In this document: in pieces, positions 187 to 1,595 of the stretch
Position numbering within the stretch: the stretch's first letter is position 1
Layout: every line of letters starts with the position of its first letter
Position numbers and translations under genes: made by a program
Notes under the pieces: model-generated
Databases searched by the model: none
What the model saw: the letters and a program-made list of their open reading frames with translations, nothing else
What the model was told of the DNA's origin: nothing
NCBI GenBank assembly: GCA_947259865.1
Contig: CAMYNZ010000188.1
Location: forward strand, 1 to 7,359
Source of the DNA: an uncultured Desulfobacterales bacterium
GTDB taxonomy: Bacteria > Desulfobacterota > Desulfobacteria > Desulfobacterales > G020354645
DNA length: 7,359 bases
Reading direction: 5' to 3'

Positions 187-717
187 TCAACGACTACATA
201 GTCGTTCCATTGAAAAGGAAAGCTCACGGACCAGGTCTTCGCCGCTGTGATAGTGTTCGCGATCGATCCAGGTTTCACTCAATTGATGCATCCAGATTGT
301 CGGTGCGGGCGGATTTTTGATCCAGACGGTACCGGCTGTATAAAAGAGATAAATATCCCACCCCACCCTGTCTTTATAGCCGAGACTGCCGGCAATCGAC
401 GTCCCAGATCGTTTGTTGGGGTCGTAAAATTGGCGCATCCGCAGATCTCTAAAATTGGCGGCTTCAACCCCGGCTTTTTCCTTTGAATCTTCGGGCAGCA
501 TTTTTAGCCACACAAAGCTGATGCTGATATCGGCATTTGAATATTTTTTTATAATCGATTCCTGTACCGCCCGGGCACCCCGTACACTTCAGCCCGGTCA
601 TGTCGGTGACAGCAGGGCCAAAAACCGCAATCGCTTGCTGTTGTCGTTAAAATGATTTTTCAGCGGCTGCAACGATCTGTCAAGTGAGATCAGCTTGATG
701 GATTGGTCAATGCTCAT
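187..717 (-). CDS. Thioredoxin-like selenoprotein with a double-selenocysteine UxxU motif
   Basis: I read this as a 176-residue, probably cytoplasmic thiol/selenol redox protein. The frame opens at ATG 717-715, with GAAGGG (733-728) as ribosome site 10 nt upstream, and stops at TGA 189-187. Two TGA codons interrupt it, at 600-598 (residue 40) and 591-589 (residue 43). Decoding both as Sec gives S-P-T-U-P-G-U-S-V-R-G-A. This replaces the CxxC of thioredoxin-fold proteins, and Cys relatives with SPTCPxC are known to me from memory. A hydrophobic strand (residues 31-39, RFLALLSPT) precedes the motif. A helix-like stretch (45-59) and a second strand (63-72, DISISFVWLK) follow it, which is the beta-UxxU-alpha-beta order of this fold. 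The C-terminal part carries GWDIYLFY, a Pro-rich PPAPTIWMHQL and ETWIDREHYHSGEDLVREL. There is no signal peptide or membrane segment. It lies 80 bp downstream of the crotonase gene on the same strand. The exact substrate is unknown. The main alternative is a pseudogene with two nonsense mutations, which is unlikely given the exact UxxU spacing. Without recoding, only a fragment starting near 513 would be called. Confidence 0.85.
571..600 (-). promoter_or_regulatory. Candidate bacterial SECIS hairpin and first recoded UGA
   Basis: Immediately after the first UGA (600-598), CCGGGC (597-592) pairs perfectly with GCCCGG (576-571). The pairs enclose a 15-nt loop, UGAAGUGUACGGGGU. The second UGA (591-589) lies inside this loop. 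The 3' side of the loop carries GGGGU, placing a GGU 19-21 nt after the first UGA, which is comparable to the SelB-binding apical loop in E. coli fdhF. A competing pairing, UGUAC (586-582) with GUACA (567-563), could form a later hairpin suited to the second UGA. Both are drawn by eye without folding energies. Confidence 0.6.
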
Positions 718-797: not shown

Positions 798-1595
798 TCA
801 TATTTTGGAATAATCCCCGTGGCGCCCGAGTCCATCAGTGAATCTCTGGGCACCCGCAATTCCTTCTTTTTTAAGGGCATCCAGACCGTTGTACCACTCT
901 CGCTCCAAGGCTTCACGCACCGGCAGACCATGTTGCAGATAGACCGAACGCCGGTCGGCCCGCATGCATTCCTGGGGAAAACGGGCGATCTCGCGGGCCA
1001 TCTCTTCAGCAGCCTCACGGGCCTTACCGTTGGGAACCACAAGCTCGCACAGACCGATGCTGTAACACTCCCGGGCCGGCACCTTGCGCCCGGTCATGAT
1101 AATTTCCAGCGCCTTACCCATACCCACCAGTCGCGGGAGACGCACCGTACCGCCATCGATCAACGGTATACCCCAGCGGCGGCAATAGACACCGAAATAG
1201 GCGCCCTCCTCCATAATCCGAACATCGCACCACAGCGCCAATTCCATTCCGCCTGCCAACGCCGGCCCGGCAATGGCGCCGATTACCGGTTTGGAAAGTT
1301 CCATCCGGCATGGGCCCATGGCGCTTCGCGGGGGCTGAGAACCGTCGGTCGGTATATCCAATTCCTCTACTTCCAGTTTGCCTTTGTTGGCGGCGGCGTA
1401 TTTGAGGTCCCATCCGGCACAAAAACAGTTGTCCTCTCCACAAAACACTGCCGCACTGGCTTCGGGATCCCGGTCAAAATCCTCAAAGGCGGCGAATAAG
1501 GCCTCGGCTGTTGCGGGATCAACTGCGTTGCGCGCCTCGGGCCTATCGATGATGATGGTCGTCACCGGTCCGCTTTTCTCGACATTCACTGTCAT
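798..1595 (-). CDS. Enoyl-CoA hydratase/isomerase (crotonase) family protein
   Basis: This is a 265-residue, soluble, full-length crotonase-fold protein acting on acyl-CoA thioesters. The N-terminal strand with DRPEARNA (17-24) is typical of the family. CAGWDLKYAA (59-68) supplies the first oxyanion-hole loop, and GPALAGGMELALWCD (110-124) the second. Glu118 aligns with the first catalytic Glu of rat mitochondrial hydratase (E144). The second catalytic Glu (E164) aligns with Cys138 in FGVYCRRWGIPLIDGG (134-149), so this is not a textbook hydratase. The CRRWGxPLIDGGTVRLPRL stretch marks a recognised subgroup, also seen in mycobacterial EchA paralogues as I recall. The C-terminus ends GAQRFTDGLGRHGDYSKI, as in that subgroup. 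The ATG has a GAGGGGGG ribosome site (1610-1603) 7 nt upstream, and a strong promoter lies further upstream. The selenoprotein gene follows 80 bp downstream on the same strand. The substrate, and whether the reaction is hydration, isomerisation or another, cannot be read from sequence. Confidence 0.93.
   Translation of the reverse strand: MTVNVEKSGPVTTIIIDRPEARNAVDPATAEALFAAFEDFDRDPEASAAVFCGEDNCFCAGWDLKYAAANKGKLEVEELDIPTDGSQPPRSAMGPCRMELSKPVIGAIAGPALAGGMELALWCDVRIMEEGAYFGVYCRRWGIPLIDGGTVRLPRLVGMGKALEIIMTGRKVPARECYSIGLCELVVPNGKAREAAEEMAREIARFPQECMRADRRSVYLQHGLPVREALEREWYNGLDALKKEGIAGAQRFTDGLGRHGDYSKI

What the first reader, a model, noticed from the sequence alone, without database searches (positions are those of the whole stretch)
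187..717. Hidden double-selenocysteine (UPGU) thioredoxin-like protein
Two TGA codons 9 nt apart sit in one frame that is otherwise open from ATG 717 to 187. Both fall exactly where a thioredoxin-fold CxxC motif is expected (S-P-T-U-P-G-U). Protein-like sequence with the right strand/helix order continues on both sides. Standard annotation would report only a fragment from about 513. Proteins with two Sec in a UxxU motif are rare; Sec-rich deltaproteobacteria are the known place to find them.
Basis: partly seen in the sequence, partly recalled or inferred. Interest (0 to 1): 0.9.

Follow-up and report, generated by a model that had tools for sequence, protein, structure and literature searches.

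The report
Double-selenocysteine thioredoxin-like protein, new family
This bacterial gene, which standard gene calling would cut down to a fragment, most likely encodes a small thioredoxin-like protein with two selenocysteines in its active site, and it belongs to an apparently uncatalogued selenoprotein family whose relatives often sit among mercury-type genes.

Summary
In detail: one frame (717 to 187, minus strand) is open except for TGA at codons 40 and 43, in SPT-UPGU. It is very probably a real double-selenocysteine gene. Relatives in separate genomes carry TGA or Cys at the same two codons in all four combinations: UxxU, CxxU, UxxC, CxxC. Purifying selection is seen on both sides of the TGAs. 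A hairpin close to the bacterial SECIS model follows at 31 of 32 Sec sites, kept by compensatory codon changes; the last site has another hairpin there. Of 26 genomes with a Sec-type copy, SelA was found in 21, SelB in 18, tRNA-Sec in 19. The window's own genome is not held. No Pfam or NCBIfam model covers the domain, and I did not recognise it in a 2026 catalogue of 119 families. The predicted fold is TlpA/ResA-like thioredoxin. Mercury-type genes lie in 20 of 32 family neighbourhoods against 0 of 40 control regions, but not in the window. Inferred role: thiol/selenol redox or metal transfer.

The parts
187..717 (-). Double-selenocysteine thioredoxin-like gene, ATG to terminal TGA, 176 aa (SPT-UPGU motif)
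   Evidence: vs L001 pN 0.23 on both sides of the TGA pair, pS 0.58 before and 0.65 after
598..600 (-). Sec codon 1 (TGA, residue 40)
   Evidence: TGA or Cys codons at this place in relatives
589..591 (-). Sec codon 2 (TGA, residue 43)
   Evidence: TGA or Cys codons at this place in relatives
564..578 (-). SECIS-like hairpin: 5' arm 578-574 GTGCC, loop 573-569 CGGGC, 3' arm 568-564 GGTAC; 24 nt lie between TGA 1 and the loop, 15 nt between TGA 2 and the loop
728..733 (-). Shine-Dalgarno-like GAAGGG before ATG 717
   Evidence: sequence printed; assignment is my reading
798..1595 (-). Upstream gene: enoyl-CoA hydratase/isomerase (Pfam ECH_1), ends in TGA; a relative (81% identity) also lies upstream of the UPGU gene in L001

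Best explanation
The frame is a selenoprotein gene whose two UGA codons are both read as selenocysteine, giving a thioredoxin-fold protein with a U-P-G-U active site in place of C-x-x-C. Supported by comparison: the frame, the two Sec/Cys positions, the fold prediction, the hairpin conservation, and Sec machinery in most genomes with Sec-type copies, the nearest relative's included. Inferred: (a) one SECIS hairpin, 15 and 24 nt after the UGAs, serves both codons; (b) the diselenol pair works as a thiol/selenol oxidoreductase or soft-metal ligand; (c) in the family as a whole that activity serves mercury or heavy-metal handling, together with MerP-like (HMA), CopZ_N [2Fe-2S]-type and MerA partners. 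I put the double-Sec thioredoxin-fold protein at about 0.95, the metal/mercury role of the family at about 0.55, and that role for this window's copy at about 0.4. The figure below is for a double-Sec thioredoxin-fold redox protein of this family.
Against: No Se incorporation was measured. The window's genome is not held, so its SelA/B/C/D are unknown; SelD was searched nowhere. No mer-type hit in the window or in the L001, L002 and L003 flanks. Rfam finds no SECIS in the window at E up to 10. Single-sequence folding against synonymous shuffles shows no general excess stability (window z +0.78), and real alignments fold only modestly better than column-shuffled ones. The 15-nt spacing to TGA 2 is just under the published 16-37 nt. 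SelA was not found in 5 of the 26 genomes; G682, G740 and G783 show none of the three components, G008 only a split SelB below cut-off. Of 4 Cys-only genomes, G743 has a clear tRNA-Sec (69.3 bits) and G015 one just over cut-off (47.7 vs 47). G002 has SelA and SelB but no tRNA-Sec over cut-off was found (127 of 592 candidates scored). The Cys site of L014 also forms five stem pairs, two of them wobble, though without the loop rule. The queries came from 7 of the 32 neighbourhoods; without these it is 13 of 25, and of those 13, L009 and L066 are hits in an HMA part of the family frame itself and L068 a thioredoxin-type hit touching the family domain, leaving 10 of 25. Related genomes are not independent.
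Confidence: 0.88

Rival explanations
1. The gene is a double-Sec thioredoxin-like protein with a general redox role (disulfide or peroxide reduction), not tied to metals; the mercury genes near relatives reflect selenoprotein-rich redox islands.
For: The window and L001-L003 have no mer-type neighbours; L056 lies near a TsoB-type rhodanese/DsbD selenoprotein gene, L059 and L002 by eye; the fold resembles TlpA/ResA/DsbE and more distantly GPx and peroxiredoxins.
Against: All 3 MerA genes over cut-off in the 31 genomes searched lie within 0.5 kb of the family gene, two in the order of G001 and one in a haloarchaeon; 20 of 32 neighbourhoods vs 0 of 40 control regions.
Confidence: 0.4
2. TGA is read as tryptophan (genetic code 4/25), so the motif is WPGW.
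For: Some database gene calls give WPGW or CPLW at this place.
Against: In the 15 genomic loci whose motif codons were printed, these codons are TGA or Cys codons, never TGG; TGA is the stop of the neighbouring ECH gene; L013 has TGA where the near-identical P0016 shows W (by eye).
Confidence: 0.02
3. The frame is a decayed pseudogene with two nonsense mutations, or a sequencing artefact.
For: Decayed copies exist elsewhere (L026/L058, L027/L059).
Against: Same TGA codons in several genomes; pN well below pS on both sides; hairpin conserved.
Confidence: 0.02
4. Only one UGA is decoded efficiently, or the second needs another signal, so the UxxU form is made poorly and the main product is the 39-residue or 42-residue truncation.
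For: Only one hairpin was seen; the spacing to TGA 2 (15 nt) is short.
Against: The 3 CxxU sites have the 15-nt spacing alone and the 22 UxxC sites have 21 nt, so both codons lie at or near spacings found singly.
Confidence: 0.1

Closest known systems
Prx-like thiol:disulfide oxidoreductase / Prx-like 2 selenoproteins (PF00578 or weak PF04592; UxxC, UxxU)
   Same: Thioredoxin-type selenoproteins in which UxxU has been reported (PMC13188914 Table 1; PMC2398784 passages)
   Different: No PF00578 or PF04592 match in any of 52 members at E up to 10. I could not see the published Prx-like 2 alignment, so identity with that metagenomic family is not excluded.
UxxU metal-binding selenoprotein NF041115 (putative mercuric reductase; MerP-like HMA)
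   Same: UxxU motif and mercury context; an HMA domain with UxxU (below NF041115's cut-off) sits in the gene next to family members in L004 and L061, and by eye in L060 and L062
   Different: It is an HMA domain; ours is thioredoxin-fold and the window protein has no NF041115 match. The one member of 52 that matches is taken to be P0085, with its fused HMA domain.
TlpA/ResA/DsbE thioredoxin-like proteins
   Different: 11% identity to 3gl3_A; no Pfam match for the window protein; WDIYLFY signature; no conserved Pro seen just before the strand at 122-126 (my reading).
MerA-MerT-MerP mercury-resistance operons
   Same: Family genes lie within 0.5 kb of merA in L013, L057 and L014
   Different: Not named as a mer component in the passages I read; the window has no mer-type gene.

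Membership tests
Bacterial selenoprotein | In-frame UGA with conserved protein on both sides | tested here: met
Bacterial selenoprotein | Cys homologs at the UGA positions | tested here: met
   CxxC in L006, L009, L014, L017 and L066; mixed CxxU and UxxC forms
Bacterial selenoprotein | SECIS hairpin fitting the bSECIS model for TGA 1 (3-9 nt loop, G[G/U] in first positions, stem 4+ bp, spacing 16-37 nt) | tested here: met
   5-bp stem, CGGGC loop, 24 nt spacing. The minimum-energy fold of the window segment from TGA 2 (-8.2 kcal/mol) pairs somewhat differently.
Bacterial selenoprotein | The same for TGA 2 | tested here: inconclusive
   Same hairpin, but 15 nt spacing, one below the published range
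Bacterial selenoprotein | SelA, SelB, tRNA-Sec, SelD in the same genome | not testable with these tools
   Window genome not held; nearest relative G001 has SelA, SelB and tRNA-Sec. SelD not searched.
Bacterial selenoprotein | Measured selenium incorporation | not testable with these tools
   needs experiment
Thioredoxin-like (TlpA/ResA-type) oxidoreductase | Thioredoxin fold with the redox pair at the start of a helix after a strand | tested here: met
Thioredoxin-like (TlpA/ResA-type) oxidoreductase | Sequence match to a thioredoxin-family Pfam model | tested here: not met
   0 families for the window protein; best thioredoxin-type hit among 52 members Thioredoxin_4 at E 0.068
Thioredoxin-like (TlpA/ResA-type) oxidoreductase | cis-Pro facing the active site | tested here: inconclusive
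   No conserved Pro seen before the strand at 122-126; model coordinates not inspected
UxxU metal-binding selenoprotein NF041115 | Match to the model | tested here: not met
   0 NCBIfam families for the window protein at E up to 10 and up to 1
Mercury-resistance operon component | Located with mer genes | tested here: not met
   Window copy: no mer-type hit in 7,359 bases. Family: near mer-type genes in many loci.

The most novel reading that the evidence does not exclude
A single SECIS hairpin directs selenocysteine at two UGA codons 9 nt apart, making a diselenol thioredoxin-fold protein that captures or reduces mercury in anaerobic bacteria. The move from UxxC to UxxU came with a one-codon insertion between motif and hairpin that keeps the second UGA 15 nt from the loop, and a conserved Arg (codon CGU/CGG) is held for the RNA loop rather than for the protein.
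Probability: 0.35. Interest if true: 0.85.

Novelty: new variant of a known kind. Interest (0 to 1): 0.74.

Why it matters
It adds an apparently uncatalogued selenoprotein family with all four Sec/Cys states of one active site, a natural series for asking what selenium does at each position. The same hairpin at 15, 21 and 24 nt from UGA is a ready test of how far SelB-dependent decoding tolerates spacing and whether one SECIS can serve two codons. Its tie to mer-type genes suggests a selenium-based route of mercury handling in Sec-using anaerobes. Many database entries for the family are fragments or appear to read UGA as Trp.

Tried and rejected
Window genome search: none held. Rfam SECIS: no hit. 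Single-sequence folding with synonymous-codon shuffles gave no consistent signal; the conserved hairpin appeared only on comparing sequences. The PDB sequence search found nothing for the window protein and one weak hit with the profile (8qag_A, E 0.018). The first genome-contig scan with the window protein alone found nothing, nor did viral contigs. The phylum-wide draw found the family only in its centre genome, 1 of 395, so the family is rare. Trp-coding and pseudogene readings rejected. Apparent CopZ_N/BFD-to-family fusions among database proteins (11 with the BFD motif among 18 long N-terminal extensions) are not used as evidence of fusion: several have a W at the junction that may be a misread TGA stop between two adjacent genes (compare L013).

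Rows dropped: hairpin counts leave out L014 and L039/L066 (Cys; missed by the text pattern) and loci without the motif (L016, L018, L027, L046, L047). With L014 and L066 added, L014 had five pairs, two of them wobble, but loop GACGC without G[G/U]; L066 had three pairs. So of 5 Cys sites, 1 has the stem and none has stem plus loop rule. mis-registered L002 and L023; one search corrected this. G518 (remnant without motif) and G016 (no motif) are in some machinery searches but not in the 26 or the 4; G741 and G769 were not tested. Of 727 proteins passing only the best 120 are listed, and 7,997 candidates were scored.

Papers: PMC13188914 (passages and parts 1-2 of 3 of section 7), PMC9312934, PMC2398784 and PMC12013277 (passages). 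Zhang and Gladyshev 2007 and the two Haft papers are not held. That the family is not in print rests only on searches, the catalogue in PMC13188914, and Pfam/NCBIfam.

Full report
OBSERVATION. The minus-strand frame 717..187 translates to MSIDQSIKLISLDRSLQPLKNHFNDNSKRLRFLALLSPT-U-PG-U-SVRGARAVQE... with TGA at codons 40 and 43 and a terminal TGA. Conventional ORF listing yields a 108-aa fragment from 513.

RELATIVES. A protein search found 86 homologs. Many begin just after the second TGA position; others carry WPGW or CPLW at the motif. Over the 140 homologs listed by two searches a motif pattern was read in 59: CxxW 49, CxxC 6, WxxW 4. Of the other 81, 37 begin within 8 residues of Gly-Ala-Arg, 20 after it, and 24 fit none of these patterns. 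The W readings are most likely TGA taken as Trp: genomic DNA of L005, L008 and L013 has CPL-TGA, and L013 is by eye near-identical to P0016, listed as CPLW. A profile scan of genome contigs gave 18 loci. Their read-throughs show UPGU (L001, L003, L004), UPRU (L002), CPLU (L005, L008, L013), UxxC (L007, L010 and L011 with two domains each, L012, L015) and CxxC (L006, L009, L014, L017); L016 and L018 lack the motif. Searches of whole genomes gave the family in 1 of 395 genomes in the phylum draw (the centre G001 itself), 9 of 291 in the order of G001 and 18 of 114 in the order of G011, a Planctomycete; these include the genomes already known. In the 17-row alignment both motif positions are Cys/Sec in every row.

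SELECTION AND TREE. Window vs L001: pN 0.23 and pS 0.58 before the TGAs, pN 0.23 and pS 0.65 after. In the tree (35 rows) the window is sister to L001 (97/90). Six of seven UxxU rows and the CxxU rows form a supported set (98/92); the CxxU clade (100/100) lies nested among UxxU rows through weaker forks (81/88, 93/87); UxxC is the main form in Planctomycetota. One economical reading, not shown, is UxxC to UxxU to CxxU. Gene content is partly kept between window and L001: PreP 75% and ECH 81% identical.

SECIS. After the motif, the codons for Gly-Ala-Arg-Ala-Val and the first base of the next codon form a 5-bp stem with a C-G-[G/U]-G-N loop. All five pairs form in 31 of 32 Sec sites; L025 has a different hairpin at the same place. 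Gly and Val third bases change together (C-G 18, U-A 11, G-C 1, one U-G): 30 of 31 strictly complementary, shuffle mean 15.3 and maximum 26 in 100,000; shuffles do not remove relatedness. Slid 3' arms never give five pairs (0 of 31 for each of six slides). Ala48 is always GCC, Arg49 always CGU or CGG, residue 50 always ends in G, residue 52 always starts with C or U (31 of 31 each). Of five Cys sites, one has the stem (with two wobble pairs) and none has stem plus the G[G/U] loop. Nucleotides between TGA and loop: 21 in UxxC (22 of 22), 15 in CxxU (3 of 3), 24 and 15 in UxxU (7 of 7). All 10 sites with U at the second position have one extra residue before Gly-Ala; none of the 22 UxxC sites has (offsets). 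These forms are related, so this may be a single event. Against: Rfam sees no SECIS here, and energy-based tests were weak.

MACHINERY. In 26 genomes with a Sec-type copy: SelA in 21, SelB over cut-off in 18, tRNA-Sec in 19 (matches near the 47-bit cut-off not counted, all counted ones are above 61 bits). Four genomes lack a clear hit for any of the three: G682, G740, G783, and G008, which has a split SelB below cut-off. Cys-only genomes G005, G013, G015, G743: SelA 0 of 4 (Fisher p 0.0046), but G743 has a clear tRNA-Sec (69.3 bits) and G015 one at 47.7 bits, just over cut-off. SelD was not searched.

CONTEXT AND FUNCTION. Neighbours by NCBIfam: MerA over cut-off in L013, L057 and L014; CopZ_N_CC (NF047645) over cut-off with a MerTP-like part below cut-off in L062 and L012; TsoB over cut-off in L056; below cut-off: MerR in L013 (143.8 of 150.85), MerTP in L057, HMA-UxxU plus CopZ_N type in L004, HMA-UxxU plus thioredoxin in L061. 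MerA passes its cut-off in 3 of 31 genomes searched, each time within 0.5 kb of the family gene; in L013 a CopZ_N-type frame and in L014 an ArsR-like frame (by eye) lie between. With ten mer-type queries, 20 of 32 neighbourhoods hit and 0 of 40 control regions did. Without the 7 query-giving neighbourhoods it is 13 of 25; leaving out L009, L066 and L068, whose hits lie in or touch the family frame, 10 of 25. In eight loci (L004, L005, L008, L013, L056-L059; order of G001 or titled Desulfobacteraceae) a CopZ_N/BFD-like frame with its own TGA (G[RKS]UCL) lies near the family gene; in L005 that frame is damaged, and in L058 and L059 the family copy is decayed. The window, L001, L002 and L003 gave no hit (L003 has only about 0.1 kb upstream, the window only 186 bases downstream). 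The mercury role is therefore a family-level inference, weaker for this copy.

NOVELTY. No Pfam or NCBIfam (June 2026) model covers the domain. The 119-family catalogue in PMC13188914 lists UxxU for the Prx-like, NF041115 and FmdB families. The Prx-like 2 family of PMC2398784 is the one known group I could not compare directly. I call it a new variant of a known kind: a new thioredoxin-fold selenoprotein family.

Noticed in passing
L004:4010-4546: Gene upstream of the UPGU gene reads HMA GMTUMGU plus CopZ_N-type GKUC: three TGA codons in one frame.
   Followed up: partly
L060:3618-4349(-), L061:5581-6318, L062:3720-4334: Planctomycete HMA (ATULGU or ATUMGU, two TGAs) plus thioredoxin fusion upstream of UPGC-type family genes.
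   Followed up: partly
L010, L011, L062: Tandem family domains, each with its own UxxC, apparently in one reading frame.
   Followed up: no
L026/L058 (G510) and L027/L059 (G518): Family copies with internal deletions near a CopZ_N-type frame: apparent decay.
   Followed up: no
L005:5238-5582 and L008 near 5600: MerR-like frames cut short near the CopZ_N-type frame, possible mer-operon remnants.
   Followed up: no
L014:5635-6528 (Haladaptatus halobius chromosome 2): CPGC family member directly after an ArsR-like regulator (by eye) and divergent from MerA in a haloarchaeon.
   Followed up: partly
database proteins P0012, P0016, P0017, P0030 and others: TGA apparently read as Trp by gene callers; some CopZ_N-family 'fusions' may be an artefact of a misread TGA stop.
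   Followed up: partly
G002 and G743: G002 has SelA and SelB but no tRNA-Sec over cut-off was found; G743 has tRNA-Sec but no SelA or SelB hit and only a Cys family member.
   Followed up: partly
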